From a virus: DNA of 64,000 nt. Both the position numbers and the translations under genes were made by a program. Shown one piece after another: positions 2,871 to 59,367 of the stretch. Numbering within the stretch: position 1 is the stretch's first letter; the number at the start of each line of letters is the position of its first letter. The DNA is taken from the IMG/VR virus record IMGVR_UViG_3300043777_000102, positions 1 through 64,000 of that record; one strand, 5' to 3'. Below the pieces are notes generated by a model. That model saw only the letters and a program-made list of their open reading frames with translations. It did not search any database and was not told the DNA's origin.

Positions 2871-3874
2871 TGGCCGTTCTCTCCACCTCGGGCGCCTACG
2901 TATATTCCCCGACCTTCATCGACATCGCCTCGGCGACGCTGCGGCTGACGCAGACGATCAACGAGGAGGAGACGGCGACCGGCGCGCAGCTCAACAACAC
3001 GCTCGCCGCGGCGAATGCCATGATCAAGGGCTGGCAGGTCTCGGGCATCCATCTCTGGTGCGAGGAGGAGTGCATCCTGTTCCCGCAGAAGGGGCAGACG
3101 CTCTACTCGCTGGGGTCGAGCAGCACGGACTATGCCACGCTGTATCAGTCGCTCAGCCAGACCTACCTGTCGGCGACGGCTCTGGCCGGCGCATCCAGCG
3201 TGACCGTCGCCAACGTGGCCGGCTTTGTGTCGGGCCAGTTCATCGGCATCCAGCTCGACTCGGGCGTCAATTTCTGGACGACGATCAACGGTGCGCCGGC
3301 CGGCAACGTGGTGACGCTGACGGCGCCCCTGCCATCCCAGGCCTCCTCAAGCACCACCCAGGTCTGCTGGTCCTATGCAACGCCGCTGGTCCGCCCGCTG
3401 CGCTGCTACACCATGCGCCGGTACATCTACGCCTCGGGCATCGAAAACCCGATGATCATGCTGAGTCGGACCGACTACCAGAACCTACCGAACAAGCAGA
3501 CCCCGGGCACGATCACCCAGGCGTTCTTCGATCCGCAGACCGGCCAGGGTGCCTACCAGGCACCGCTCGCCCAGGTGAACCTCTGGCCGTCGCCGGTCGA
3601 TTACACCTCGGGCTTCCGGTTCACGGCGCAGCGCCCATTGCAGGACCTGGCGAACCTCGCGAACCTGCCGGACCTACCCGTCGAGTGGACCGCAGCGATC
3701 AAATGGAACCTCGCGCAAGAGGTCATGGGCGAGCTGGGCACCCCGACGGACCAGCAGCAGCTCATCAACACGATGGCGCCGATGTGGTTTCAGCGGATCC
3801 AGCAGTGGGATCGTGAGCCGGAAGGCATCCGGTTCGGCGTGGCGTTCGAGCCGGGCTATCGGGTCGGCATCTGA
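2870..3874 (+). CDS. P22 gp4-like tail accessory / head-to-tail adaptor
   Basis: 334 aa. The N-terminus (ASATLRLTQTINEEE, then ANAMIKGWQ and LWCEEECILFPQKGQ) and the C-terminus (LWPSPVD, then WTAAIKWNLAQEVM) match the P22 gp4 / tail accessory factor family, which sits below the portal and starts the neck. Residues about 105-160 are an inserted beta-module (GASSVTVANVAGF, IGIQLDSG, VTLTAPLPSQ) also found in both flanking structural proteins. The next virion protein is the gp10-like gene, as in P22-type neck clusters. Confidence 0.85.
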   Translation: MAVLSTSGAYVYSPTFIDIASATLRLTQTINEEETATGAQLNNTLAAANAMIKGWQVSGIHLWCEEECILFPQKGQTLYSLGSSSTDYATLYQSLSQTYLSATALAGASSVTVANVAGFVSGQFIGIQLDSGVNFWTTINGAPAGNVVTLTAPLPSQASSSTTQVCWSYATPLVRPLRCYTMRRYIYASGIENPMIMLSRTDYQNLPNKQTPGTITQAFFDPQTGQGAYQAPLAQVNLWPSPVDYTSGFRFTAQRPLQDLANLANLPDLPVEWTAAIKWNLAQEVMGELGTPTDQQQLINTMAPMWFQRIQQWDREPEGIRFGVAFEPGYRVGI

Positions 3875-4419
3875 TGCGGACATTCGACACCGGGAGCGCG
3901 CTGTTCGGCATTGAAGCGCCTGCCGCGCGCACGATGGGTTCTCACCAGTCCGCGGCCGCTCAAAGCACGACTTGGCTGACGCCGCCCGAGATCATCCTCG
4001 CGCTCGGTCCGTTTGACCTCGATCCGTGCGCCTGTCCGTTGCCGCGACCTTGGCCGACTGCCGCGACGCAGTGGACTCGCGCCGATGGCTCCCTGGCGCG
4101 CGCATGGACCGGTCGGGTGTGGCTCAATCCGCCATTCGGCCCCAAGGACGTCGTGACGGCCTTCATGCGTCGGATGGCCGACCACAACCACGGCACCGCG
4201 TTGCTGTTCGCTCGCACCGAGACCGCGCTGTTCTTCGAGACCGTGTGGGGTAAAGCGTCGGCGCTCCTGTTCCTGAAGGGGCGCCCGCATTTCCACCGCG
4301 CCGATGGGAAGCGCGCACGGGCCAACAGCGGAGCGCCGGTGGTGCTGATCGCGTACGGCGTATCCGATGCGGAACGCCTCCGGGCCTCCGGACTGCCGGG
4401 TGCCTGGGTCGCCCTCTGA
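3874..4419 (+). CDS. Phage Dam-type adenine-N6 DNA methyltransferase
   Basis: 181 aa. STTWLTPP (31-38), DPCACP (50-55) and LNPPFG (84-89) are the signatures of the phage DNA N-6-adenine methyltransferase family; NPPF is the catalytic motif. It would methylate phage DNA, possibly against host restriction. It is oddly placed between two neck genes, with one-base overlaps at both ends, so it is expressed late with structural proteins. Confidence 0.88.
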   Translation: MRTFDTGSALFGIEAPAARTMGSHQSAAAQSTTWLTPPEIILALGPFDLDPCACPLPRPWPTAATQWTRADGSLARAWTGRVWLNPPFGPKDVVTAFMRRMADHNHGTALLFARTETALFFETVWGKASALLFLKGRPHFHRADGKRARANSGAPVVLIAYGVSDAERLRASGLPGAWVAL

Positions 4420-5963
4420 TGCCTCCCTTCCAATTTGCTGCGGCCGCATACCAAGCCCGAAGCACGCAGCTTCTCGCGCAGCAGTGCATCAACGCCTTCG
4501 TCGAGACGACGCCCAAGGACGCCAAGACACCGGTCCCGATCTATGGCACGCCCGGCCTGAGCGTCTTCATCCGCGCCGGTAACGGGCCGATCAACGGCGC
4601 GTGGGTGATGGCGGGGAACCTGTATTTCCTGTCGGGCGGCGCGCTGTACGAGGTGCTGGCATCCAGCGTCATGACCAATCCCGACGGGTCGGTGTCGGCC
4701 TCGGCCACGCTGATCGGCCAGACCACCATCGGCGGGATCGCGTCGCTCGCGGATAACGGCCTGCAGCTCGTAATGGTCGACGGCTCGGCCGGCTGGATTT
4801 ACCAGCCTGGCGGCCTGAACCTGGTCACCACCGCCACGGACAGCCCGGCCAATGTGGTCACGGCCACGGTTCAGGGCACCACCACCAATGGCGACGTCGT
4901 CAGCCTGGTGGCGACAGCCGCTCAAATCTCGGGCTCGCCGGTGACCGTTCAGGCGACCTCCAGCCCGTCGTCGAACACCGCGACCATCGCTCAGGCTCTG
5001 GCGGCGGCGATCAACGGCAACGGCTCATTCTCGGCGGCCGGCGTATCGGCGCTGGTCAACGGATCCACCATCGCGCTCAGCGGGCCGGCGACCTATTCGA
5101 TCGCCTGGACCTCGTCGACGTCCGGCGCGGCCACCGAGTACGTCACCTTCGGCTCGGCGGTTGTCCAGGGCGCCACCCAGGTCGCTGCCAACATCACCGG
5201 CACAGTCACCGCAGGCGATACGCTCCTGATCCCCTTGGACAGCGGCGCCACCTTCACCACCACGGCGACCCAGACCGTCGGGCCGTCGAGCGGCATCCTG
5301 TACTGGGCCGATCCGCTGCCGTCGCAGGTCAGCGCGGGCGCGGCGATTATCGACCCGGGCAACTACCTCGCGCAGATCGAAGCCCCCGCCTTCATGCCGG
5401 CGAACGTCGTCACGTACATGGACGGCTACTTCGTCTTCAACGCCTCGGGAACGCGGCAATTCTTCCTGTCGGGAATCAACGACGGGACGCAGTACAGCGG
5501 CCTGGACTTCGCCACCGCGACGGCGAACACGGGCGACGTCATGACCGTGGTGAATTTCCACGAGCAGCTGCTGATTATGACCAACAAGCCGAGCATCGAG
5601 GTCTGGTACGACTCCGGGGCGTCGGCCTTTCCCTTCCAGCGATATGACGGGGCCTACATCCAGCGCGGGATCGCGGCGTCGCTCGCCTTCTGCTCCGAGG
5701 ACAACACCGTCTTCTGGATGGGGGACGACGGGATCGTGTACCGGCTCAATGGCTTCCTGCCGCAGCGGATCAGCACGTTCGCCATGGAGCATGCCTGGGC
5801 GCAGTATCCGCAGCGCTACCTCGACTGCTTCATGTTCGTGCTGGACCAGGAGGGCCACAAATTCGTGGTCTGCCAGTTCCCGTCGGGCAACCAGACCTGG
5901 GTGTACGACATCTCGACGCAGCTTTGGCACCAGCGGGAAAGCTGGGGTACGCCTTGGGTGTGA
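4419..5963 (+). CDS. P22 gp10-like neck protein, lacking the usual C-terminal part
   Basis: 514 aa. The N-terminus (ARSTQLLAQQCINAFVE, then TPVPIYGTPGLSVF) and middle (MTVVNFHEQLLIM, IQRGIAASLAF, VFWMGDDGIVYRLNG, WVYDISTQLWHQRESW) match P22 gp10-type packaged-DNA stabilisation proteins, which plug the portal-gp4 channel. About 200 residues (roughly 140-320) are an inserted beta-rich region containing the module shared with the two structural genes upstream. The protein stops just after the LWHxRxSW motif, where family members normally continue with WRG...LVGD...DPV-IIGAYLD. That missing half is found twice downstream (8930-11800 and 13011-13991). Confidence 0.85.
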   Translation: MPPFQFAAAAYQARSTQLLAQQCINAFVETTPKDAKTPVPIYGTPGLSVFIRAGNGPINGAWVMAGNLYFLSGGALYEVLASSVMTNPDGSVSASATLIGQTTIGGIASLADNGLQLVMVDGSAGWIYQPGGLNLVTTATDSPANVVTATVQGTTTNGDVVSLVATAAQISGSPVTVQATSSPSSNTATIAQALAAAINGNGSFSAAGVSALVNGSTIALSGPATYSIAWTSSTSGAATEYVTFGSAVVQGATQVAANITGTVTAGDTLLIPLDSGATFTTTATQTVGPSSGILYWADPLPSQVSAGAAIIDPGNYLAQIEAPAFMPANVVTYMDGYFVFNASGTRQFFLSGINDGTQYSGLDFATATANTGDVMTVVNFHEQLLIMTNKPSIEVWYDSGASAFPFQRYDGAYIQRGIAASLAFCSEDNTVFWMGDDGIVYRLNGFLPQRISTFAMEHAWAQYPQRYLDCFMFVLDQEGHKFVVCQFPSGNQTWVYDISTQLWHQRESWGTPWV

Positions 5964-6180
5964 GGGTGCGCATTGCGTCCTGCGCGTGACGGACTCGCTC
6001 GCCCAGTTACGGGGTGCCGGGTCGCAACTCCCAGCCTAAACCATACCGTCGGACTGATCGCGCCGCGGACGCGACCCACCCGCAGCGACGGTATAGCACA
6101 TCGCGCCAGACTGCGGCATATTCCCATCACGCACGCCGCGCCAGCAGCCGCGGCTCCCCTGATACAGCGGAGCATCGGCC
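5964..6180. repeat. Intergenic region with nested inverted repeat
   Basis: No convincing gene. Two 9-base arms, ATACCGTCG at 6043-6051 and CGACGGTAT at 6086-6094, are perfect inverted repeats. Between them sits a second stem, TCGCG at 6058-6062 and CGCGA at 6070-6074. There is no clear T-run, so it is not a classic terminator. It lies where the gp10-like coding sequence breaks off. Confidence 0.5.
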
Positions 6181-6648
6181 ATGCCCAACTATGCGATCAA
6201 CAACGAACTCGGCGGCACCCAGCAGAACCTGACCTCGACCTACAAGACCCTGGTCGCGGCCACAGCGCAGACCACCGGACTCAAGCGGTTCAAGGTCTAT
6301 GACATCCTGATCGGCACCGACGGCACGCCGGCGGACAACGCCATCGACTTCGACGTGGTGCGCCAGACCGCGGCGGGCACCTCGACCCCGGTGGTTCCGC
6401 AGGCGTTGGACCCGGCCGACGGCGCGGCCGTGACGGTCGGCAGCGTGAACTTCACCGCCGAGGGCACGACCACCTCGTCCAGCCAGGTGCTGTTCCTCGG
6501 CATCAACCAGCGTGCGTCCTACCGCTGGGTGTGCGCGCCGGGCTCCGAACTTGTGGCGCCAGCGACCAACCTGGCCGGCTTCGCGATGCGGATGAAGTCG
6601 GCGGCGTACACCTCGACGGCGACCTGCGCGACCCTGATCAGCGAGTGA
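6181..6648 (+). CDS. Conserved-looking virion-region protein
   Basis: 155 aa, beta-rich, starts MPNYAINNELGGTQQNLTST; not a family I can name. Composition (Thr/Ala-rich, few charges) suits a structural protein made in quantity. It is the first gene after the noncoding gap behind the gp10-like gene. Confidence 0.7.
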   Translation: MPNYAINNELGGTQQNLTSTYKTLVAATAQTTGLKRFKVYDILIGTDGTPADNAIDFDVVRQTAAGTSTPVVPQALDPADGAAVTVGSVNFTAEGTTTSSSQVLFLGINQRASYRWVCAPGSELVAPATNLAGFAMRMKSAAYTSTATCATLISE

Positions 6649-6651
6649 TCG

Positions 6652-6954
6652 GTGCGGAACGCGGGCGGCTACGGGCAGATCATCTGCGACGATCCGCAGC
6701 GCGCGGTCGTCGTCGATAAGCTGTCCGGGCAGCGGCTGCCGCCGGAAGTCGACACGTTCGGGTGCCGTCATTGCAATCGGGTGGTGTTCGTCCCGGTCAA
6801 GGCCGATCCGGCGACCATCGGCGGCATGTGCTACGGCTGCATGGGGCTGATCTGCTCGGGCTGCGTGGCGACCGGCAAGTGCGACCCGCTGGAGGCCAAG
6901 TTGGAGCGCATGGAGCGCCGGCAGGACACGCTGCGATCGTACGGCATGGCATAG
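6652..6954 (+). CDS. Small Cys-rich (zinc-binding) protein
   Basis: 100 aa with a GTG start. Cysteine pattern CRHC, CYGC, CSGC, then a single C (residues about 38-77) suggests a zinc ribbon or double knuckle, followed by a charged helix (EAKLERMERRQD). Partner and function unknown. Confidence 0.7.
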   Translation: MRNAGGYGQIICDDPQRAVVVDKLSGQRLPPEVDTFGCRHCNRVVFVPVKADPATIGGMCYGCMGLICSGCVATGKCDPLEAKLERMERRQDTLRSYGMA

Positions 6955-6963
6955 GAGAGCACA

Positions 6964-7305
6964 GTGAGCGGCAGCGATTCCTGGGCACAGCTTTCGACGG
7001 CACAGCAGAACGAAATCCTCGCCTTCATGCCGATGTTCAGGTCGAACATCAGCGCATTGGCGATCTCGCTGCGGGTGCTGAACGAGTACATGAACCTATG
7101 GAACAACGGCGGCCTCTCGGCATTGGTCAGTGTCTTGGCGCCGTCGACGACGATCCCCGACACTACGGGATTGGCTGGAGCACAACCTCTCCTAGCGTCG
7201 GATGTGACAGGCACCATGACCAGCGCGCAGGGCTTGCTCGCATCCTACTACGCCGCGGCGGATCTGGCGGAGTTCGTGAAGATCGCCGGACCGCCGAACG
7301 TCTAG
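6964..7305 (+). CDS. Hypothetical helical protein
   Basis: 113 aa, GTG start behind a GGAGAG ribosome site. Mostly helical (ISALAISLRVLNEYM), no recognised domain. It lies directly in front of the beta-helix gene, so it may be a small tail-associated protein. Confidence 0.65.
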   Translation: MSGSDSWAQLSTAQQNEILAFMPMFRSNISALAISLRVLNEYMNLWNNGGLSALVSVLAPSTTIPDTTGLAGAQPLLASDVTGTMTSAQGLLASYYAAADLAEFVKIAGPPNV

Positions 7306-7308
7306 CCA

Positions 7309-8607
7309 ATGGCCATCAACGCAACGGCTGTATGGCGGGTTCGGCCGAGTGGCTCCAACACAAACGGGGGTGGCTACGATGCCGGCATAGTTGGCGCCGG
7401 GACCGACTACTCGCAGCAGAACTCGGCACAGGCTAGTGGGACGCACGGGACTGCTACAGGCACCACGGCATTCAGCGATACTGTGGCAGCGAACTTCACA
7501 TCGGCGATGGTGGGGAACGCGCTCTATATAACTGGCACAGGATTGACAACTGGGTTTTACTTCTGCACCGCTTACAGCAGCGCCACCGCCATTACTCTCG
7601 ATCGTTCTCCCGGGACTGGCACGGTTGGGACTTGGCATCTTGGTGGCGGCTGGGCGGACTTCTGGACGAACACGACGAGCAGCGGTCCGTTGGTGCCTGG
7701 AAACACTGTCTACATTCTCGGCAGCGGTGTGCCGAACCCATCATCCTATACCTATGATTATTCCCCATCGACCTACTTCACACCAGCTTCCGGGTCGAGT
7801 ACGACCGGCAGCATCACCTTCGCTGGCGATCCATCCACTCCGAACTACTCAACCGGCGGAATGCCTTGCATCAAGACGCAAGGGTTACTATTCTTCAGCA
7901 ACGCTTACATTATCATGCAGAGCCTATATTTTGTGTGCGCTGCGGCAAATTTTGGGTCTGATGGTATAGCCGGTGGCAATAGTGGTTCACTACAGGTAAT
8001 AAAAAGCTGCGTTCTCGACCAGTTCGGATACGACGTTGCGCTTTCTGGGACAGGCTCCGGAGTTGCCGCACATATTTTTTCCTCTGAGGTATTCAGCTCC
8101 CAAGCCAAGGTATCGACGAACGCCAACTACGCTATCGGGTTGATCCAGGCCTATGGTTGTATCCTGCAAAATTGTAATATCCACGATTGCATTGGCCCAG
8201 CGGTCACCATATCGAGAATGGCGAGTGTAACCGGAAATATCATCGCAAAGAATGGCGGGGTTGGGCTACTCATAAGCAATGGAGGGTCGAACTTTTTTCA
8301 GCATGTCAGCAACAACACGATCGACGCTAATGTTGGTAACGGGATAGAGTTCGACTCTCAACAGAGTCTGGCTGTAACAACCTGCATTAACAACATCATC
8401 TCGGGACACGTAACGGCCTCGACCTATGGCCTGACGGTAGACTCTGGGACGGCTGCGGCGAACACCCTCGTGGCTCTGTTCTGCGATTACAACACTTTCT
8501 ACAACAACGCGACCAACTACAACGCCATTAGCGCAGGCCCGCACGACACGGCTCTCGGCACGACCCCTTACGTAGCCCAATCCACTGAAAACTACACGCT
8601 GGCATAG
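7309..8607 (+). CDS. Parallel beta-helix tail protein (tailspike-like)
   Basis: 432 aa. Residues about 180-400 show the repeated short strands and Asn/Gly turns of a right-handed parallel beta-helix (for example ILQNCNIHDCIGPAVTIS, VTGNIIAKNGG, NNTIDANVGNGIEF, YNTFYNNATNYN). Such folds bind or cut surface polysaccharide in tailspikes. No catalytic residues can be assigned. The gene is visibly richer in A/T than its neighbours, a common sign of recent exchange in receptor-binding genes. Confidence 0.75.
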   Translation: MAINATAVWRVRPSGSNTNGGGYDAGIVGAGTDYSQQNSAQASGTHGTATGTTAFSDTVAANFTSAMVGNALYITGTGLTTGFYFCTAYSSATAITLDRSPGTGTVGTWHLGGGWADFWTNTTSSGPLVPGNTVYILGSGVPNPSSYTYDYSPSTYFTPASGSSTTGSITFAGDPSTPNYSTGGMPCIKTQGLLFFSNAYIIMQSLYFVCAAANFGSDGIAGGNSGSLQVIKSCVLDQFGYDVALSGTGSGVAAHIFSSEVFSSQAKVSTNANYAIGLIQAYGCILQNCNIHDCIGPAVTISRMASVTGNIIAKNGGVGLLISNGGSNFFQHVSNNTIDANVGNGIEFDSQQSLAVTTCINNIISGHVTASTYGLTVDSGTAAANTLVALFCDYNTFYNNATNYNAISAGPHDTALGTTPYVAQSTENYTLA

Positions 8608-8928
8608 ATGACCGTCCTCACACCCAGCAACGCCCTGCCGGGTGCACCGTTCCAGCAGCATCTCGCGAGCCAAACGACCACCGTTACGTCCTACGTCTAC
8701 CCCGGCGCGGTCCAGCCTCAATCCACATTGCCTGCGGTGCTGTCCTACACGAACGCGCTGCCGAATGCGCCCTTTCCACAGCACCTCGCCGGCCAGACCA
8801 CGACCGTCCAGGCGTTCATTTTCCCTGGGGCGGTGCAGCCGAGCGCCGCTGGGGCTGCATTCACCTGGCTCGGCATGACGCCGCTGAGCGAGCCGATTCG
8901 CCTGAACCCGGAGATGGTGGGCTACTGA
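8608..8928 (+). CDS. Short repeat protein with terminal LSEP motif
   Basis: 106 aa, starting directly after the stop of the beta-helix gene. It has two copies of a roughly 45-residue unit (NALPGAPFQQHLASQTTTV then YPGAVQP; second copy NALPNAPFPQHLAGQTTTV). The last 20 residues contain TPLSEPIR, a partial copy of the repeat that fills the next gene. Probably part of the same appendage; function unknown. Confidence 0.65.
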   Translation: MTVLTPSNALPGAPFQQHLASQTTTVTSYVYPGAVQPQSTLPAVLSYTNALPNAPFPQHLAGQTTTVQAFIFPGAVQPSAAGAAFTWLGMTPLSEPIRLNPEMVGY

Positions 8929-8929
8929 G

Positions 8930-11800
8930 GTGGCCCGGACGCTTTACCAAATCCACGCTGAGCCGCAGCGCGCCTATAAGACGATCACGTTCAATTCGTC
9001 GGGGCATTTCACGGTCCCGCAGGACTGGAACAACAACGACTTCACGATCGACGGGTGGGGGCCGGGTGGTAACTCGGCTGCTGGCACCACGACGGGTGCC
9101 GGCGGCGCTGGCGGTTCTGGTGGGTGGTCGCGGCTCGACCCTCGGGTAACGCCGCACACCCTGATCCCGGGCACGACCTACCAGGTCGTCATCGGCGCGG
9201 CCGGGTCTGGCACCGCGACGTCGCTTGGTGCGCTGCTGGTTGCCAACGCGGGCGGCAACGCTTCGGGGATCACCGGCGGCACGGGCGCGACCGCGGGCAC
9301 GGGGGACCAGACGCGGGCCGGCACGACGGGGGCGGCGGGTACCTCACTCCTCGTTGGTGGTGCCGGCGGCACAGGCGCCCCAGGGCCGCTCGGGTTGGGC
9401 GCGGCAGGAGGGGCCTCGGCAACCTCAAACACCGGTGGCAACGGCGGCGGCGGCGCGGACGGTGGTTCTGTTGGATCACAGTCGGCCATCAACGTCGGGG
9501 GCAACGGGGGCAACAACGCATCGGGGGCCGGGAGCGGCGCTGGTGGGCCCAGCAACAACACCTCCGGGTCTCCCGGCACGCTCGGCGGCGGCGGTGGGGG
9601 CGCTGGCGCCGGGGGTGCTGGCGTCGGTGGCATCGGCAGCGCGGCAGCGTCGGGCGCCGGGTCGGGCGGCGGTGGTGGAGCGGACAGCGGATCGACCTCC
9701 AACCACGGTGGAGCGGCCGGCGGCTATGGCGCGTCTGGTGGCGCTGGCGGCGCGGGCACGACCTCGGGTGGCGCTGCCGGTGCGTCCGCCGCCGGCGGCA
9801 TCATCATCACGTACCTGCCGACGACGAACCAAGAGTTCACCGTCGCGAGTTGGTCGCCGGTCCTCGACATCCCGCAGATGCAGCCGGTCGGCTTGCGGGC
9901 GTGGCTGCAAGAGTTCGGGACCGGCCAGCCTGTAATACCGCCGGCGTCGCTGCCGCGGCTTGGCTGGCGCGAGCCGCTGTCCGAGCCACCGGTTCGGCCG
10001 TGGCTTCTGGCTGCCCAGCAGCAGGTGTGGGGCGGCCCGGTCGCGCCCGCAACAGTTGTCGTTACCGTCAACCTTGGTTGGTTTGAGCCGCTGTCTGAGC
10101 CGGTGCGGCTCCCTGCCGCGCTGCCCGCCAGCGAGCAGAGGGCCGATACCGAGCCTGTGCGGCCACCGCAGCCCCCCGTCCAGTTCTACGAGCCGCTGTC
10201 GGAGCCCTACCCGGCGACGCGCGGGCTCCCAGCGACTGAGCAACAGGCATGGGCCGGGCCGATCGCTCCACCGCAGCCGCCGGCGCAGTTCTTCGAGGCG
10301 CTGAGCGAGCCTGTCCGTCAGCCGGTCGCGCTACCTGCCGATCAGCAGCAGTTCGCTGCGGCACCCGTCGCGCCGCCTGTCGCGCCTCTGTTCCCACATG
10401 AGCCGCTCAGTGAGCCGACGCCGCGGCCGTGGTTGCTGACCGCACAACAGCAGGCCTGGACAGGACCAATCGCTCCGGTCAGCGCCGCGGTCACGGTCAG
10501 CATTGGCTGGTACGGTCCGCTGTCCGAGCCGGTCCGGTTCGCCTCGTTCCTGACGGCCTGGCACGTCGCCGCGGCCGGCCCTGTGGCGCCCCCGCAGCCG
10601 CCCGCTCAGTTTTTTGAGCCACTATCGGAACCGCCCGGCAGACCGTGGCTCCCAGCGGCTCAGCAGATTGCCTGGACAGGACCGCAGATCGCGCCGGCCG
10701 CGCCCGCACCGGCGATCAAATATGAACCGTTGTCCGAACCGCCCCTGCGGCCATGGCTGCTTCCGGCGCAGCAACAGGCGTGGACCGGCCCGGCGACTAA
10801 GCCGATCTACCCGGTCAAGCTCTACCCGCCGCTCAATGAGCCGCCGACACGACCCTGGCTGCCGGTCACTCAGCAGCGCGCCTACACCGGGCCAGAACTG
10901 TCGCAACCGAACAAGGTGCCCCCGCTCGGCTGGTTGGTTGGTCTGAGCGAACCTGTCCGTCAGCCGCTTGGATTGCTCGCCTGCCAGCAGCTTGTGTGGG
11001 CCAGCGAGATCATCATCCCGCCGCCGCCGGAGCCAGTCACGCCGCCGACGCTCGGCTCTTGGCGCGGCCAAGTCGGGATCAACTGGCTCGGGATGGCGCT
11101 GGTGGGTGACGCGTACACCGGCGTGATGGGTCTGTCGGACTTCGGCTCATTCACCGAGTACGGCAACACCATGCGGTTGCTGGTGACGAGCCCGCCGATC
11201 CACGAGGACCGCAGGCGCGTTTTCATCCGCCGGTTCGAGGTCGATGTGCAGAGCGGCGTCGGCACCGCAGCGGTCACGCAGTCGCGTGGTGGGCCCGGGC
11301 CAGTGTCGATCATGGTGTCATGGAGCGCGGTGCCGACGCCGCCGTCCCCGGTCACCGTTCTGTCCTACACGCTGCAATGGTCGCCACATGGGTTGAACCA
11401 GTGGCAGACGATCACCGGCCTCGGGCTGACCGCGACGATCAGCAACCTGACGTCAGGTGCGACCTACGACTTCCAGGTGGCGGCGCTCTACAGCAACGGC
11501 CAAGGGCCTTGGTCATCTATCGCCATTGGCGGCCCATGCCTCGGCGCGCCGGCGGGCACCTTCACGATCCCGGCGGCGACCAACCCCAACCTGATGCTGG
11601 ACTGGTCCGGCAATGGCGGCATGACCTGGAGCGAACAGAACATCTGGCGGCAGATGGGCGCCGTCGGGCAGTACAAGCGCCGCCTGCGGTGGCTGAATCT
11701 CGGGCAGTCGCGGTCCTGGGTGCTGCGTTTGACCTGCACGGACCCGGTGCGCCGTGCGATCATCGGCACCTATCTCGACGTCGGCGTGGGAGGGATGTGA
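8930..11800 (+). CDS. Large modular appendage protein: Gly-rich, LSEP repeats, split gp10-type C-terminus with FN3
   Basis: 956 aa, GTG start. Residues about 45-290 are extremely Gly/Ala-rich. Residues about 344-705 hold ten units of 35-38 aa, consensus roughly E-P-L-S-E-P-x-R-x-P..L..A-x-Q-Q-x-A-W-x-G-P. Residues about 708-956 match the missing C-terminal half of the gp10-like neck protein (GSWRGQ, ALVGDAY, FEVDVQSGVG, then NPNLMLDWSGNGG, VLRLTCTDPVRRAIIGTYLD), with an FN3 domain (about 790-880) inserted inside it. The Gly-rich part resembles adhesin or collagen-like shafts. Probably a tail- or neck-attached fibre; this is inference. Confidence 0.75.
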   Translation: MARTLYQIHAEPQRAYKTITFNSSGHFTVPQDWNNNDFTIDGWGPGGNSAAGTTTGAGGAGGSGGWSRLDPRVTPHTLIPGTTYQVVIGAAGSGTATSLGALLVANAGGNASGITGGTGATAGTGDQTRAGTTGAAGTSLLVGGAGGTGAPGPLGLGAAGGASATSNTGGNGGGGADGGSVGSQSAINVGGNGGNNASGAGSGAGGPSNNTSGSPGTLGGGGGGAGAGGAGVGGIGSAAASGAGSGGGGGADSGSTSNHGGAAGGYGASGGAGGAGTTSGGAAGASAAGGIIITYLPTTNQEFTVASWSPVLDIPQMQPVGLRAWLQEFGTGQPVIPPASLPRLGWREPLSEPPVRPWLLAAQQQVWGGPVAPATVVVTVNLGWFEPLSEPVRLPAALPASEQRADTEPVRPPQPPVQFYEPLSEPYPATRGLPATEQQAWAGPIAPPQPPAQFFEALSEPVRQPVALPADQQQFAAAPVAPPVAPLFPHEPLSEPTPRPWLLTAQQQAWTGPIAPVSAAVTVSIGWYGPLSEPVRFASFLTAWHVAAAGPVAPPQPPAQFFEPLSEPPGRPWLPAAQQIAWTGPQIAPAAPAPAIKYEPLSEPPLRPWLLPAQQQAWTGPATKPIYPVKLYPPLNEPPTRPWLPVTQQRAYTGPELSQPNKVPPLGWLVGLSEPVRQPLGLLACQQLVWASEIIIPPPPEPVTPPTLGSWRGQVGINWLGMALVGDAYTGVMGLSDFGSFTEYGNTMRLLVTSPPIHEDRRRVFIRRFEVDVQSGVGTAAVTQSRGGPGPVSIMVSWSAVPTPPSPVTVLSYTLQWSPHGLNQWQTITGLGLTATISNLTSGATYDFQVAALYSNGQGPWSSIAIGGPCLGAPAGTFTIPAATNPNLMLDWSGNGGMTWSEQNIWRQMGAVGQYKRRLRWLNLGQSRSWVLRLTCTDPVRRAIIGTYLDVGVGGM
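9959..11046 (+). repeat. Ten tandem LSEP coding repeats
   Basis: Tandem in-frame repeats of about 105-114 bases inside the 956-aa gene. Each has a PLSEP-type core (LNEP or ALSEP in some) and a downstream Q-Q-x-A-W-x-G-P element. Two further copies open the protein at 13011, and a half copy ends the protein at 8608, so the unit has spread over three genes. Confidence 0.85.
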
Positions 11801-11803
11801 GCC

Positions 11804-13018
11804 GTGGGCGCGTTCAGTGGGCACCAATACTGGGGCATCACCACCACTGCGACCGGTGGGAACACGCCAGTTTCCATCGGGTCGGTTGCATTTCGCGTTA
11901 CGTCGGGCGGCGCATCGCAGACTATGGGGCCGGCTGCATCCGCGGAGATATCAGGCTCCGACGGCATGGCGTATCAGGCCTTTGACGGCAGCTCGACGAC
12001 CTGGTGGGTCACTAGTTCCGGGACGCAGTGGATCGGCTGGTATTTCGGCGCGCTGGGCGCGCAGGTCGTCTACGAGTTCGCGGTCACGGTGCCGAGCACG
12101 GGATTTGCGTACGACTTCGGGCCGGGCACGTTCAACCTCGACTATTCGGATGACGGATCGAGCTGGACCACGGGCGCCTCGTTTAGCGGCATCACATGGT
12201 CATCCGGGCAGACGCAGACCTTCGCCACCGGCGCCGCGTCGGCGCACCTGTACTGGCGCATCAACACCAGCGCAACGCAGGAGGGTGTGGGGTCGGCCAT
12301 CTACATCGCTAACATCGCGCTGCACGCCACGTCCGGAGGGGCGAACCTAGTTCAAGGGACGGCGACCGCCACCAGCGTCCTGACCAATTCCAACACCGAT
12401 TCCGCATCAAGCGCGGCGGAGTTCGCGCCGGTCGTGGGCTCGTGGCAGGCCAACACCGGTGTCTCGGCAGCGTCCTGGTATTACAACTTCGGCGCCGGTC
12501 TGACGCCCAATATCGTCGAGGTCGCTATGACCGGCGCCGGAGGGGCAAACGCAAACGACTCGCAGAGCCCGACCGCATTTTCGGTGATCTACTCCGACGA
12601 CGGCGTGACCTGGTACACGGCCTATTCCTTTTCTGGCGTCACCTGGTCATCGAAGTATCAGGTCCGAGTATTCGACATTCCGCAGCCGCCGAACACACCC
12701 GTTGATCTGTCCGTCGGAAGCGCCACAAACGCAAGCCTGACGGCCTCATGGGTGGACGGCGGCGGGGGGACGACCGTTTCCTATACGCTGCAATACCGCG
12801 TGACCGGCACGGGGCCGTGGACGCAGATCACTGGAATTGTCGGGCTGAGCCAGTACGTCTTTCCGCTCCTGTCGGGGACCGAGTACGACTTCCAGGTGCA
12901 AGCGGTGAACGCGGCGGGCAGCAGCGCCTTCACCGCGACGGTCAACGGCACTACGCTCGCCTTCACACCGGTCTACCCGACGAATCTCGCGACCGCCTGC
13001 GTGGTCCCCGTTGGCTGA
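11804..13018 (+). CDS. Putative carbohydrate-binding tail protein (two F5/8-like domains plus FN3)
   Basis: 404 aa, GTG start. Two similar beta-sandwich units (about 1-170 and 175-285), each with a YSDDGxxW motif followed by FSGxTWSS, resemble F5/8 type C (discoidin-like) domains that bind sugars. Residues about 287-390 are an FN3 domain (LTASWVDGG, YTLQYRV, YDFQVQAVNAAGSS). It lies between the two proteins that carry the displaced gp10 C-terminal module. Likely receptor binding; the exact ligand is unknown. Confidence 0.72.
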   Translation: MGAFSGHQYWGITTTATGGNTPVSIGSVAFRVTSGGASQTMGPAASAEISGSDGMAYQAFDGSSTTWWVTSSGTQWIGWYFGALGAQVVYEFAVTVPSTGFAYDFGPGTFNLDYSDDGSSWTTGASFSGITWSSGQTQTFATGAASAHLYWRINTSATQEGVGSAIYIANIALHATSGGANLVQGTATATSVLTNSNTDSASSAAEFAPVVGSWQANTGVSAASWYYNFGAGLTPNIVEVAMTGAGGANANDSQSPTAFSVIYSDDGVTWYTAYSFSGVTWSSKYQVRVFDIPQPPNTPVDLSVGSATNASLTASWVDGGGGTTVSYTLQYRVTGTGPWTQITGIVGLSQYVFPLLSGTEYDFQVQAVNAAGSSAFTATVNGTTLAFTPVYPTNLATACVVPVG

Positions 13019-13991
13019 TCTCGGTTACATCTCCTGGTTCGAGCCGCTCAGCCTGCCAGTGCGGCAGGTTCCGGGGCTCCCCGCGGTCGAGCAGCTTGCG
13101 TTTGCCCGCGGCTTCTACCCGCTGCCGGCGCCCTATTTGCCGTCGTGGTTCGAGGCGCTGTCCGAGCCGCGGCGCTACCCGCCGATCCTGATCCCGGGCC
13201 AGCAGCGCTTCGACTTCCGGCCGATCGCCGCGCCGCCGATCTCGGCGCCTGGAGTGCCCATCGACCTCTATGGGACGCCGGTCGCGACCTCGATCAACGT
13301 GTTCTGGACGCCGGGCGGCGGGGACGCATGGACCAGCTTCACGCTGCAATGGCGGCTGCTCGGCGCGTCGTCATGGAACACCGTCACCGGCATCCTGACG
13401 ACGTCATACGTCATCACTGGGCTGACCGCGGATACCAGCTACCAGATCCAGGTCGAGGCGCTGAACACGGCTGGCGCCAGCGCGTTCGCCGGGCCGATCA
13501 CGGTCACTACCCTGACGCCACCGTCGCCGGTCCAGGTGCCGACGCTTGGGGCCTGGCGCGGGGTCTGCGGAATCAACTGGCTGGGCTTCGCGCTGGTGGG
13601 AGACGGCTTCTCCAATGTGCTCGGCCGGTCCGACTTCGCCAACTTCACGGAGTACGGGAACACCATGCGGCTCCTGGTCACGTCGCCGCCGATCCAGGGC
13701 AACCGATACCGGATGTTCATCCGCAAATTCGAGGTAGAGGTCCAGGCCGGCGTGGGCGATACCGCGGCGCCGAACCCGCAGATGATGCTCGACTACTCGC
13801 GCGACGCCGGGGAGACCTTCGGGCCGCTGATCATCTGGCGGTCCATGGGCGTGACCGGCGACTACACAGCGCGGCTTCGGTGGCTGTCGCTCGGCTCGTC
13901 GCGCGAGTGGGTGCTTCGGCTGACATGCACCGATCCGGTCAGGCGCGCTATCATCGGGACGTATCTGGACGCCAAGGAGGGCACCGGCTGA
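13011..13991 (+). CDS. Modular protein: two LSEP repeats, FN3, intact gp10-type C-terminal domain
   Basis: 326 aa, TTG start overlapping the previous stop by 8 bases. Residues 1-80 are two LSEP-type repeats, about 84-180 an FN3 domain, and about 183-326 a continuous gp10-family C-terminal domain (AWRGVCG, ALVGDGF, RMFIRKFEVEVQAGVG, MMLDYSRDAGE, RLTCTDPVRRAIIGTYLD). Unlike the copy at 8930-11800, the gp10 part here is not interrupted. It may supply the half missing from the gp10-like protein at 4419-5963. Confidence 0.78.
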   Translation: MADLGYISWFEPLSLPVRQVPGLPAVEQLAFARGFYPLPAPYLPSWFEALSEPRRYPPILIPGQQRFDFRPIAAPPISAPGVPIDLYGTPVATSINVFWTPGGGDAWTSFTLQWRLLGASSWNTVTGILTTSYVITGLTADTSYQIQVEALNTAGASAFAGPITVTTLTPPSPVQVPTLGAWRGVCGINWLGFALVGDGFSNVLGRSDFANFTEYGNTMRLLVTSPPIQGNRYRMFIRKFEVEVQAGVGDTAAPNPQMMLDYSRDAGETFGPLIIWRSMGVTGDYTARLRWLSLGSSREWVLRLTCTDPVRRAIIGTYLDAKEGTG

Positions 13992-14465: not shown

Positions 14466-15053
14466 ATGGCTGCCTTGCCCCCCTGCCTGGTGATCGGGAC
14501 GCCGCGTAGCCGCACGGCATGGCTGAGCGCCTTCCTGAGCACACCTGAGCGGCCTTTCGTCCATGAGCCGTCGGTGCACTGGAAGGGACTGGGCGACCTG
14601 TACGGCTTCCTCGACGGCGCCGGGTGCGCCAGCGACTCGGGCCTGACCCTGTTCTGGAAAGAGGCTGTGGCGCACCGGCCCGACACGCGGCTGATCGTAG
14701 TGCGGCGCGACCCTGTCGCCGTGACGGCGAGCTTCCTGCGGATCGGCTTCCCGGCTCAGCAGAAGATGGACCTGTACCAAGGCGTCTATCGCATCTGGCG
14801 CGAGGCCGTGGTCGCCTCAGCGCACCACTATGCGATGACCGTGCCGTTCAACAACATGCGGAGAGCGAGCATCTGCGGCGCGATCTACCGGCAGGCGCAC
14901 TGGACGAAGGCGCCGCGGGGCTACGTTGGTCCCTGGCTCGGGCAGAACATCCAAGCTGACATGGCGACGCAGTTGGCCGCGGCGGCTGCCAACGCGACCG
15001 GCTTCCCGGCGCTCCTGCAAGCCCGACTGCATCCCGTGATGGAGGCGGCCTGA
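14466..15053 (+). CDS. Sulfotransferase-like protein
   Basis: 195 aa. GTPRSRTAWLS (11-21) is the 5'-phosphosulfate (PSB) loop of PAPS-dependent sulfotransferases, and VVRRDPVAVTASF (about 77-90) resembles the 3'-phosphate-binding loop. It would move sulfate from PAPS onto an unknown acceptor, perhaps a glycan. It sits alone among virion genes after a 77-base gap, like a moron gene. An alternative is a P-loop protein that has lost activity. Confidence 0.7.
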   Translation: MAALPPCLVIGTPRSRTAWLSAFLSTPERPFVHEPSVHWKGLGDLYGFLDGAGCASDSGLTLFWKEAVAHRPDTRLIVVRRDPVAVTASFLRIGFPAQQKMDLYQGVYRIWREAVVASAHHYAMTVPFNNMRRASICGAIYRQAHWTKAPRGYVGPWLGQNIQADMATQLAAAAANATGFPALLQARLHPVMEAA

Positions 15054-54096: not shown

Positions 54097-55587
54097 ATGC
54101 CCCTGGTCTACTCCTGCGAGGGCATGCCCACGATCCAGCGGTTCTTCGAATCGGATGCCTACATCCGCGGCCTCATGGGACCGTACGGGAGCGGGAAAAG
54201 CTCGGCTTGTGTGATGGAGGTCGCCCAGCGCGGCATCCGACAGGCTCCGGGACCTGACGGGGTGCGCCGGTCGCGCTTCGCGGTCATCCGTAACACGATC
54301 AAGCAGCTTGAGGACACGACCGAAAAAACTTTCCTGCAATGGTTCCCGCCGATCCAGTTCGGCGATTGGACCCCAAGCAAGCACAACTACAGAATCCGGG
54401 CTCTCCGCGGCGAAGGGGACGACCGAGGGGCGGAAATCGAGGTGATGTTCCGCGCCTTGGACCGCCCGGATCAGAAGGGCGACCTGCTCTCGATGGAGCT
54501 GACTGGCGCTTGGATCAATGAGGGCCGTGAGATCGACTGGGAAATTTTCGAGGCCGTGACTGGCCGCACCGGCCGGTATCCGCCGAAGGGCATCGGGCCC
54601 GGGGCGACTTGGTTCGGCCTATTCAGCGACACGAACCCGCCCGACACGGATTCAGATTGGTACCGGTTTTTCGAGGAGGAGGACCACTCCGAGAAGGTGG
54701 CCGAACTCGCCAAAGTCGTGCCGGGCATGACTGTCGACAGCTTCCGGCAAATCTTCAAACAGCCCAGCGGACGATCGGCACGCGCGGAAAATCTCAACCA
54801 CTTGGTCGACGGCTATTATCAGCGCGAGGCCATCGGCAAGAGCGACGAGTGGGTCAAGATCTTCGTCGACGGCCAGTACGGCTTCACGGTCGAAGGGCGC
54901 CCGGTCTGGCCTGGTTACAGCGATGCGCTTCACTGCCCCGCGGAAAAACGGCTCTGGCCGCGCCCGATCGAGGGTCTGCCAATTCAGCGGGGCTGGGATT
55001 TCGGGGGCACTCCGGCCTGTGCCTTCAGCCAGATCACTCCCCGCGGGCAGTGGATCATCTTCGACGAGATGACGTCGACGCGGTCCGATGCCGACGAGTT
55101 TTCCGATCATGTGCTGGACCACTGCGCGCGTGAGTATCCGCAATTCGAGTTCGAGGACGTGGGCGACCCCGCTGGTAACTCGCGGTCGGATGCCGACTCG
55201 AAGACCTGCTTCATGATTCTCCGTGGCAAGCACATCCTGATCGAGCCGGGTATCCAGACCCTGGCCATCCGGCTTGCCAGCGTGGCGAAGCCGCTCCGCA
55301 CCCTAGTCGACGGCGGCTTCCCGCAGTTTGTCCTTCATCCCCGCTGTAAGGACCTGCGCCGCGGCATGATGGGGGGCTACCATTTTCGTCGGATGAAGAT
55401 CAGCGGTGAGCGCTACGCTGAGACCCCAGAAAAGAATAAATTCTCCCATATTTGCGATGCGCTGGGGTATACTGGCACGCGCCTGTTCGGCGTCGCGCTG
55501 CGATCACCCCCGGATAATGGCCAATCTTCTCGCCAATATGGCGACCGACTGGACGACCGCAGCAGATCGGGTGTCACGGGATATTAG
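54097..55587 (+). CDS. terL: Terminase large subunit
   Basis: 496 aa. Walker A GPYGSGKSS (28-36), Walker B region LLSMELTGAWINEGRE (about 129-144), and nuclease residues in GWDFGGTPAC (Asp near 301), VGDPAGNSRSDADS (near 357) and HICDALGY. ATP-driven DNA packaging motor and cutter. Its last 14 bases overlap the end of the antisense HNH gene. Confidence 0.93.
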   Translation: MPLVYSCEGMPTIQRFFESDAYIRGLMGPYGSGKSSACVMEVAQRGIRQAPGPDGVRRSRFAVIRNTIKQLEDTTEKTFLQWFPPIQFGDWTPSKHNYRIRALRGEGDDRGAEIEVMFRALDRPDQKGDLLSMELTGAWINEGREIDWEIFEAVTGRTGRYPPKGIGPGATWFGLFSDTNPPDTDSDWYRFFEEEDHSEKVAELAKVVPGMTVDSFRQIFKQPSGRSARAENLNHLVDGYYQREAIGKSDEWVKIFVDGQYGFTVEGRPVWPGYSDALHCPAEKRLWPRPIEGLPIQRGWDFGGTPACAFSQITPRGQWIIFDEMTSTRSDADEFSDHVLDHCAREYPQFEFEDVGDPAGNSRSDADSKTCFMILRGKHILIEPGIQTLAIRLASVAKPLRTLVDGGFPQFVLHPRCKDLRRGMMGGYHFRRMKISGERYAETPEKNKFSHICDALGYTGTRLFGVALRSPPDNGQSSRQYGDRLDDRSRSGVTGY

Positions 55588-56927: not shown

Positions 56928-57133
56928 GCGCCACGCTCACCGGGCCGAAGCCGCCGCTGCCCAGCCCGAAAAGAAAGCGCCCTGTCGCAGATGAACGGGC
57001 CGAGCACGACCGCATTTTGGCCTCTGGGCATGCGACGGATGAGGAAATAGCCGAGGGAAAAGTGACCATCAAGGAGATCGGGGCACTCGGGTGGGCGCCA
57101 GACCCAGTGCGCCGGATATGGTTCGGCCTATGA
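56924..57133 (+). CDS. Chimeric small protein (portal-like N-terminus, neighbour-like C-terminus)
   Basis: 69 aa. N-terminus MSATLTGPKPPLP copies the portal start MSATLAAPTPPLP. The rest (DRILASGHATDEEIAEGKVT, IKEIGALGWAPDPVRRIWF) copies the C-terminal half of the previous protein. Overlaps both neighbours by 4 bases. Confidence 0.7.
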   Translation: MSATLTGPKPPLPSPKRKRPVADERAEHDRILASGHATDEEIAEGKVTIKEIGALGWAPDPVRRIWFGL

Positions 57134-59367
57134 GCGCCACACTCGCGGCCCCGACACCGCCCCTTCCCGGTTTGCCGCCGAGCCTGCTGCCCAAGGGCAA
57201 CGGCGCCGCGCCGCCCGAGACCGCCGAGGACACCGAAGCGGCCTCCGAGTCGCAAAAACCGCCCGAATCCGAGCACGCGGCGCTGCTGCGGCGCTGGGCG
57301 CGGATGGTCAACATCGCTGACGAGTTTTTCCACCGGGAAGGCGACACAAACGCCGAGCTCGACAAGCTCCAGATGCGTGTCAGCCGCGAGTACGACGTCG
57401 ACAAGCAAAGCTGCGCCGACTACCTCGAAAAATACCAAAAATGGCTCGATTTCGCCATGCAGATCACGAAGGAGAAGACCTATCCGTGGCCGCGGGCGAG
57501 CAACGTCATCTATCCGCTGCTGAGTTCGGCCGCCATCCAGTTCGCCGCGCGCGCCTACCCGTCGATCATCCGCGACAAGGACGTGGTGAAGGGCCAGATC
57601 GTCGGAGACGACAAGGGCACACCGACCCCCGACCCGGCCACCGGCGGCCAGTTGCAGATCAATGGCCAGCCGCAGTGGGTCTCGCCGCCCGGGGCAAAGA
57701 AGATCAAGGCCGATCTCGTCGGTCGCCACATGAGCTGGCAGCTTCTGACCGAGCAGGAGGAGTGGGAGCCGCAGACCGATCGCATGTTGATCGTGCTGCC
57801 GATCGTCGGGACCATGTTCCGGAAGTCGTTTTTCGACCCCAATCTGCGCCAGAACGTCTCGGAGACCGTCGACGCGACCCGGCTGTGCGTGAATTACCAC
57901 GCGCGGAGCTTCGAGACCGCGCCGCGCAAGACCGAGATCTTCGAACTCTACCCCTGGCAGATCGAGGAGCGGATCCGGTCCGGAATCTATCTGGACCGCG
58001 ACTACGGGGCCGATACCGATGAGCGCTCGGCCGAGGATGAGGACAGCCCGGTCACCTTCCTCGAGCAGCACCGCCGCTATGACCTGGATGACGACGGCTA
58101 CGCCGAGCCGGTGATCGTCACCATCGCCCGCGACTCGGGAAAATTGGCCCGAATCCGCGCCGGCTGGGAGATGAGCGGCGTTGAGTGGACGCGCGACGAC
58201 CGAATCCGCCGGATCGAACCGGTCGATTACTACACCAAATTCGGCTTCATCCCGTCGCCGGCGTCATGCGTCTACGACATCGGCTTCGGCCATTTGCTGT
58301 TCCCGATCAACGAGGCGATCAACACGTCGCTCAACCAGATGTTCGATGCCGGGCACCTGCAGAATGTGGGCGGCGGCTTCATCGGCTCGGGGCTGTCCAT
58401 CAACACCGGCGCGGTCCGTTTCCAGGTCGGCGAGTACAAGCCGGTCAACACCATGGGCGGCAACATCCGCGACCAGGTGTTCACCCTGCCGTTCCCCGGG
58501 CCCAGCCAGGTGCTGTTCGCCCTGGTGCAGTTCCTGGTCGAAGCCGGCAAAGAGATCGCCGCGGTCAAGGATGTCATGGTCGGCGACATGCCAGGGGACA
58601 ACACCTCGGGCATCACCACGCTGGCCGTGATCGAGCAGGGGCTGAAGGTCTACTCGGCCATCCACAAGCGGATCCTGCGGTCGCTGGGGTACGAGTTCCG
58701 CAAGCTGTTCCGGTTGAATCGGCTCTATCTGCCGCTCGAGGGCGGCTGGATGGACGGCGACGAGTGGAAGTCGATCACCCGGGACGACTATGCAAAATCG
58801 GCAGGGGTCGCCCCGGTCAGCGACCCGCAGATGGTCACCGACATGCAGCGCCTCGGCCGGGCGCAGTTCCTGATGCAGTTCAAGGACGACCCGCTGTTTG
58901 ACGGCCGTAAGATCAGGATGGCCATCCTCGATGCCGCGCTGATCCCCGACGCCGAGGGCTTCCTTGCCCAGCAGCCGCCGCAGGACCCGAAAGTCGCCTT
59001 GAAGGGCCGCGAACTCGACATCCGCGAAGCGCACGAGCACGCCGAGGCATTCCTGCGGAAGCGCCACGACAGCGTGACCATGATCAAGGACATCGCCCAG
59101 GCCGAGCTATACCTTGCCCAAGCCCGCGCGCTGGATAATGATGCACAGCTTAAATGGGTCGAGCAGCACCTCGAAAGGCTCAAACTTGAGTACGACGCAG
59201 CCGCAGCCAGCAGCGCAGGCAGTGACACCGGAGAGGGCGGTTCCCCCGCTCCTGGTGGAGCTCAGCCCCCAGCAATTCCAGGCATGGCGCCACCACCCGG
59301 TAACCCGGCTGCTCTTGCAGGACTATCTGCCAGCATGGCGGGCAGCCCGGGGCAAGGAACTGCTTAA
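57130..59367 (+). CDS. Portal protein (P22-like/podoviral)
   Basis: 745 aa from ATG 57130. DEFFHREGDTNAELDKLQMR, then WLDFAMQITKEKTYPWPRAS, VIYPLLSSAAIQFAARAYPS, and later YTKFGFIPSPASC, FPINEAINTSLNQMFDAG match podoviral portals. It forms the dodecameric DNA gate at one capsid vertex. The C-terminus is Pro/Gly-rich and its last 182 bases overlap the next gene in another frame. Confidence 0.88.
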   Translation: MSATLAAPTPPLPGLPPSLLPKGNGAAPPETAEDTEAASESQKPPESEHAALLRRWARMVNIADEFFHREGDTNAELDKLQMRVSREYDVDKQSCADYLEKYQKWLDFAMQITKEKTYPWPRASNVIYPLLSSAAIQFAARAYPSIIRDKDVVKGQIVGDDKGTPTPDPATGGQLQINGQPQWVSPPGAKKIKADLVGRHMSWQLLTEQEEWEPQTDRMLIVLPIVGTMFRKSFFDPNLRQNVSETVDATRLCVNYHARSFETAPRKTEIFELYPWQIEERIRSGIYLDRDYGADTDERSAEDEDSPVTFLEQHRRYDLDDDGYAEPVIVTIARDSGKLARIRAGWEMSGVEWTRDDRIRRIEPVDYYTKFGFIPSPASCVYDIGFGHLLFPINEAINTSLNQMFDAGHLQNVGGGFIGSGLSINTGAVRFQVGEYKPVNTMGGNIRDQVFTLPFPGPSQVLFALVQFLVEAGKEIAAVKDVMVGDMPGDNTSGITTLAVIEQGLKVYSAIHKRILRSLGYEFRKLFRLNRLYLPLEGGWMDGDEWKSITRDDYAKSAGVAPVSDPQMVTDMQRLGRAQFLMQFKDDPLFDGRKIRMAILDAALIPDAEGFLAQQPPQDPKVALKGRELDIREAHEHAEAFLRKRHDSVTMIKDIAQAELYLAQARALDNDAQLKWVEQHLERLKLEYDAAAASSAGSDTGEGGSPAPGGAQPPAIPGMAPPPGNPAALAGLSASMAGSPGQGTA

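What the first reader, a model, noticed from the sequence alone, without database searches (positions are those of the whole stretch)
4419..13991. gp10-like neck protein split: its C-terminal half is missing and occurs twice in downstream repeat proteins
The 514-aa gp10-like protein ends right after LWHQRESW. The family normally continues with WRG..., LVGD..., GVG, MLxxSxDGG, DPV..IIGxYLD. That whole block is present as residues about 183-326 of the protein at 13011 and, interrupted by an FN3 domain, as residues about 708-956 of the protein at 8930. The neck plug may thus be built from separate chains, joining the neck to surface fibres.
Basis: partly seen in the sequence, partly recalled or inferred. 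Interest (0 to 1): 0.8.

Follow-up and report, generated by a model that had tools for sequence, protein, structure and literature searches.

The report
Phage tail-ring protein split in two
In a family of short-tailed phages, the ring protein that closes the DNA exit channel is encoded as two separate chains instead of one, and the second chain carries unrelated surface-type domains from phage to phage; the phage in this window carries two versions of that second chain.

Summary
The 514-aa protein (4419-5963) covers only positions 6-326 of the 486-position gp10/Hc3 family (phrog_578). Positions 331-472 lie at the C-terminus of the protein at 13011 and, cut once by an FN3 domain, at the C-terminus of the protein at 8930. 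The 70.9-kb record holds no other copy.

It is no accident of one contig. Fifteen further non-redundant contigs share the split at the same point and form one clade with the window; their sister phages are single-chain. Usually the two genes are adjacent, with differing frames and stop codons; in one lineage the C gene lies upstream. Both halves are under purifying selection and diverge in step, but the C chains carry mostly unrelated N-terminal modules. A model of a close single-chain relative puts the break in a loop of the 7-bladed propeller: the N half makes six blades plus one strand, the C half the last three strands and most of the platform.

Best explanation (about 0.75): a tail-hub ring of non-covalently paired chains, in which the C chain is an exchangeable carrier of surface modules. 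Binding between the chains is inferred, not shown. New variant of a known kind.

The parts
4419..5963 (+). N half of the gp10/Hc3 tail-hub protein, 514 aa, ending LWHQRESWGTPWV
   Evidence: phrog_578 positions 6-326; same end in 15 related contigs
4905..5168 (+). about 88-residue stretch (residues 163-250) inserted in the N half, shared with L008 only among the aligned closer relatives
   Evidence: alignment
8930..11800 (+). C chain A, 956 aa: glycine-rich region, PLSEP repeats, C half with internal FN3
9047..9829 (+). glycine-rich region of chain A
   Evidence: read directly from the translation
9956..11044 (+). ten PLSEP repeats of about 35 aa in chain A
11057..11272 (+). first part of the gp10 C half in chain A (phrog_578 331-401)
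11300..11521 (+). FN3 domain inserted in the C half of chain A
   Evidence: PF00041; alignment
11576..11788 (+). second part of the gp10 C half in chain A (phrog_578 402-471)
11804..13018 (+). 404-aa protein between the two C chains: two F5/8-type C (discoidin-like) regions and an FN3; same run of genes, role unknown
   Evidence: Pfam
13011..13991 (+). C chain B, 326 aa: two PLSEP repeats, FN3, uninterrupted C half
13284..13505 (+). FN3 domain of chain B
   Evidence: PF00041 residues 92-165
13551..13982 (+). gp10 C half in chain B (phrog_578 331-472)

Best explanation
In the ancestor of this phage group the P22 gp10-type tail-hub protein was divided once, in a loop just before the last (velcro) blade of its seven-bladed propeller, and it is now made as two chains that assemble without a covalent link. 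The N chain supplies the N-terminal platform strands, six blades and one strand of the last blade. The C chain supplies the other three strands of that blade and most of the platform that should sit on the adaptor ring. Its N-terminal part, attached at the break, is an exchangeable surface module, so the C chain works as a socket through which the hub displays adhesin-like domains. This phage has two paralogous C chains: A (glycine-rich region, ten PLSEP repeats, FN3 inside the C half) and B (two PLSEP repeats, FN3); each position of the ring would take A or B. Shown: the split, its conservation and single origin, complementary coverage of one solved fold, joint divergence, purifying selection, module exchange. 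Inferred: binding of the two chains, ring stoichiometry, outward display, receptor or fibre binding, mixing of A and B.
For: Constant break at phrog_578 326-334/330-332 in all split records, with one N and one C half in each untruncated relative. Single clade of split N halves, support 100, with single-chain sister group; C halves one clade, 99/98. N profile covers 4-304 and C profile 314-436 of the same solved chain 9vyg_M; likewise 58-319 and 348-455 of P22 gp10 8eap_G. Model of the single-chain sister L044 (pLDDT 91, pTM 0.89) superposes on P22 gp10 (Z 39.7); free propellers align to its residues 41/43-358/361, which hold 28 strands, and the break falls at 320-329. N and C halves diverge in step (Mantel r 0.83, 0 of 5000); dN/dS 0.08-0.33 in both halves and both window copies. 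Modules are mostly unrelated (16 of 120 pairs similar), and one module type sits on the C chain in L009, L013, L029 but on the end of the N half in L015. Precedent for a propeller completed by a partner chain: Sec13 and Seh1 (PMC8907234).
Against: No physical evidence: no multimer prediction, no virion data, no isolate. Joint divergence and purifying selection also fit two proteins of one virion that do not touch. The C half of copy A alone gave a poor model (pLDDT 55), and that copy has an FN3 inside the platform and SGNGG in place of the Asp-box SxDGG. All split sequences are metagenomic contigs.
Confidence: 0.75

Rival explanations
1. The N half alone forms a working hub; the C modules survive only as anchors that dock adhesins or fibres onto a finished ring as optional decoration.
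For: C halves always end proteins with display-type modules; the C gene moves independently; copy A tolerates an FN3 inside the C half.
Against: By the model the N half would leave a propeller with only one of four strands in its last blade and lack most of the platform; every untruncated split relative keeps a C half; C halves are as constrained as N halves; L015 keeps a bare C half of 164 aa with almost no module.
Confidence: 0.12
2. The two genes give one polypeptide after all, by stop-codon read-through, frameshift, trans-splicing or intein splicing.
For: In L009, L015, L018 and L029 the genes are in one frame with a single stop between them.
Against: Stop codons are TGA, TAG and TAA and frames differ among relatives; in L030-L034 the C gene is upstream and in the window it is kilobases away, twice. 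No intein or intron was specifically searched for, but the halves abut the break with only short tails.
Confidence: 0.03
3. As the main explanation, but only B (or only A) completes the ring in this phage; the other copy is a relic or a separate fibre protein.
For: Copy A carries an FN3 inside the platform and a changed Asp-box; all other split records have a single C half.
Against: Copy A keeps nearly all positions conserved in the C half and differs from B with dN/dS about 0.33, with synonymous sites partly saturated.
Confidence: 0.3

Closest known systems
P22 gp10, Sf6 gp8, Pan3/Pam1 stabilization or needle-head protein (phrog_578; Pfam PF11134)
   Same: Both halves are homologous to complementary parts of these chains, and the single-chain sister's model superposes on them
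   Different: They are one polypeptide; here two, with extra modules on the second and, in this phage, two versions of it
SU10 gp17 and T7 gp12 nozzle proteins
   Same: Seven-bladed propeller plus platform; insertions serve as fibre docks, in SU10 on the velcro blade (PMC9509320, PMC6702177)
   Different: Single chains; the dock is a loop or domain that binds a separate fibre. Correspondence of the SU10 dock loop with our break could not be established
Sec13 or Seh1 with domain invasion motifs of Nup145C, Sec31, Nup85
   Same: A propeller lacking one blade completed by a partner protein (PMC8907234): works alike if our inference holds
   Different: Eukaryotic, not homologous; there the partner is not the former second half of the same chain as far as that paper says
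Dual tubeA (adaptor) arrangement of Sulfitobacter phage PhiGT1
   Same: Two versions of a tail-hub component in one podophage, proposed to relate to fibre diversity (PMC10386132)
   Different: Duplicate adaptor genes, not a split nozzle protein

Membership tests
P22 gp10 / head closure Hc3 (phrog_578) | Sequence homology over the whole family profile | tested here: met
   Met only by the chains together: 6-326 plus 331-472
P22 gp10 / head closure Hc3 (phrog_578) | One polypeptide holding both halves | tested here: not met
   Three separate ORFs in the window; split in 15 further contigs
P22 gp10 / head closure Hc3 (phrog_578) | Seven-bladed propeller plus platform fold | tested here: met
   For the single-chain sister L044; for the split chains by homology only, and copy A's C half alone gave a poor model
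P22 gp10 / head closure Hc3 (phrog_578) | Hexameric ring between adaptor and needle in the virion | not testable with these tools
   No virion data
Pfam PF11134 Phage_stabilise | Score above the curated cut-off of 25 bits | tested here: not met
   No match for the window proteins at E up to 1; C chains of relatives score 13-15 bits at profile positions 346-452
Propeller completed in trans (Sec13/Seh1 type) | One chain lacks strands of a blade that a partner chain encodes | tested here: met
   By strand count on the L044 model: 25 strands in the N half, 3 in the C half; a likeness of working, not homology
Propeller completed in trans (Sec13/Seh1 type) | The partner physically inserts its strands | not testable with these tools
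   No multimer prediction or binding data

The most novel reading that the evidence does not exclude
The split turned the tail-hub ring into a plug-in display platform: the N chains take interchangeable C chains, and this phage builds one ring from two kinds, A and B, so that a single virion shows two different surface modules from otherwise equivalent positions.
Probability: 0.35. Interest if true: 0.75.

Novelty: new variant of a known kind. Interest (0 to 1): 0.64.

Why it matters
gp10-type proteins help hold packaged DNA in the head of short-tailed phages and are conserved and normally single-chain. A lineage in which the propeller is closed by a second, exchangeable chain would show how an essential closure can be coupled to fast-changing surface domains, and would give a natural split site for studying assembly in trans. 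By their modules the C chains look like FN3 or fibre proteins, so such hubs are easily missed in annotation.

Tried and rejected
Read-through, frameshift or splicing into one chain: rejected as a general route on gene order, mixed stop codons and mixed frames. Assembly artefact: rejected, since the split recurs in many metagenome contigs in one clade and copies A and B are well diverged. Apparent splits in L020 and L046 are contig ends; L070 is one ORF whose C half fell below threshold. Search of bacterial genome contigs with the N half found no relative. Placing the break against SU10's fibre dock loop by sequence failed: hhalign found nothing and a local alignment was no better than shuffles. 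The model of copy A's C half alone was poor; its search returned mostly FN3 domains and weak gp10 matches (9vyg_M Z 8.2, 8u10_1 Z 7.7). Paper searches turned up no split nozzle or gp10 protein among the results read; the library holds open-licence papers only, so this is weak evidence of absence.

Full report
Observation. The 514-aa protein at 4419-5963 matches phrog_578 (head closure Hc3, the P22 gp10 group) only up to position 326 of 486. The proteins at 8930 and 13011 carry positions 331-471 at their C-termini. A search of the whole 70,887-base record gives the same five pieces and nothing else. In the 8930 protein the block is interrupted between positions 401 and 402, where an FN3 domain sits.

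The family continues beyond the motif. Single-chain relatives from IMG/VR, for example L044 (477 aa), match phrog_578 from 4 to 472 in one ORF. In Rhodoferax phage P26218, DSL-LC05, PBR31, phiAX1 and eight further annotated genomes the gene is single, about 390 to 490 aa long.

How common. Searches of viral contigs with the N half and with the closer alignments A3 and A4, followed by profile searches of all ORFs, give fifteen non-redundant split contigs besides the window: L008, L009, L010, L012, L013, L015, L016, L018, L027, L029, L030, L035, L036, L039, L056. L036 ends before its C half. In the tree of N halves these and the window form one clade with support 100; the sister group is single-chain (L037, L038, L040-L044, L047, L054; L046 is truncated). 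The C halves form one clade too (99/98), with copies A and B of the window grouped with L008 (93/91). The simplest reading is one splitting event. Bacterial genome contigs gave no relative.

Gene order. In most contigs the C gene starts at or shortly after the N stop, in L010 overlapping it (TGATG). Stop codons are TGA, TAG or TAA and frames differ. In L030-L034 the C gene lies about 2 kb upstream of the N gene. In the window two C genes lie kilobases downstream in a tight run, 8930-13991, together with a 404-aa protein with two F5/8-type C regions and an FN3. Untruncated split relatives have one N half and one C half each; the window alone has two C halves. This excludes read-through or frameshift as a general route to one chain.

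What the C chains carry. N-terminal to the C half are varying modules: LamG-like by eye, with or without FN3 (L009, L013, L029), a repeat region (L010), another module shared by L016, L035 and L030, or short repeats (L012, L018) (FN3 by Pfam in L009, L013, L030). Only 16 of 120 module pairs show BLAST similarity. A proline-rich stretch often precedes the C half: 5-9 prolines in the last 25 residues in ten of fifteen chains. L015 is telling: its C chain has almost nothing before the C half, and a module similar to those of L009, L013 and L029 (E 1e-17 to 1e-22) is fused to the end of the N half, again behind a proline-rich stretch. The same kind of module thus sits at the same break from either side. 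Copy A has a second insertion, FN3, in a loop whose length varies in the family.

Evolution of the halves. Divergence of N and C halves among 15 split genomes is correlated (Mantel r 0.83, none of 5000 permutations as high). Shared ancestry alone would give this, so it shows joint inheritance, not contact. Pairwise dN/dS is 0.08-0.33 in the pairs tested, for both halves, and 0.33 between copies A and B, with synonymous sites partly saturated.

Structure. The AlphaFold2 model of the single-chain sister L044 is confident (pLDDT 91, pTM 0.89). It superposes on P22 gp10 (8eap_D, Z 39.7, 439 residues, rmsd 2.2), Pan3 (9vyg_M, Z 39.3) and Sf6 gp8 (7sg7_S, Z 36.7) (Foldseek). Free-standing propellers align to residues 41/43 to 358/361 (4yvd, 2z2o, also 3vgz), a range that holds 28 strands. 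The break of the split phages corresponds to L044 residues 320-329, between strands 314-317 and 333-339. By strand count the N half holds 25 strands and the C half the last three (333-339, 342-347, 352-357), followed by residues 362-477. In T7 gp12 the first strand of the propeller completes the velcro blade, and the platform combines N- and C-terminal strands (PMC6702177); by homology the C half should close the propeller and build most of the adaptor-facing platform. In SU10 the velcro blade (blade 1) is distant from the channel axis and bears the short-fibre dock (PMC9509320), so a module at this blade could face outward. These last two statements are inference.

Mechanism. Completion of a propeller by a partner chain is known from Sec13 and Seh1 (PMC8907234). 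The proposal is that N and C chains assemble into the usual tail-hub ring and that the C chain doubles as the carrier of surface modules. Separate genes for complementary halves are shown from sequence; binding, stoichiometry, outward display and host or fibre binding are inferred. Whether A and B share one ring is open.

Novelty and limits. The family is known; the split form was not found in the twelve annotated genomes examined or in the papers searched, within an open-licence library. It is a new variant of a known kind. All split sequences are metagenomic, the tree rests on 16 split sequences, no multimer prediction was possible, and the model of a C half alone was poor.

Noticed in passing
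L041, L042, L043, L046, L047, L054 (and L068, distant): Single-chain gp10 relatives with inserts of hundreds of residues inside the N half, in L041 with matches to virion structural and tail-fibre families: possibly a second display site in the same protein.
   Followed up: partly
3874-4419: Dam-like DNA methyltransferase (PF05869, phrog_111) between the gene at 2870 and the gp10 N half.
   Followed up: no
9956-11044, 13026-13235, 8860-8928: PLSEP repeat of about 35 aa: ten copies in chain A, two in chain B, one at the end of the 106-aa ORF at 8608; the motif was not seen in other fetched loci.
   Followed up: partly
7309-8607: Right-handed beta-helix protein (PF13229), possibly a tailspike.
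   Followed up: no
34-2238 and 14466-15053: A TPR protein with a glycosyltransferase family 9 match, and a small protein with sub-threshold sulfotransferase matches, both near the structural genes.
   Followed up: no
54097-55587 and 57091-59367: Terminase large subunit (phrog_2) and portal (phrog_1216) lie far along the window from the gp10 genes; the ends of the record are not known to be the phage's ends.
   Followed up: no
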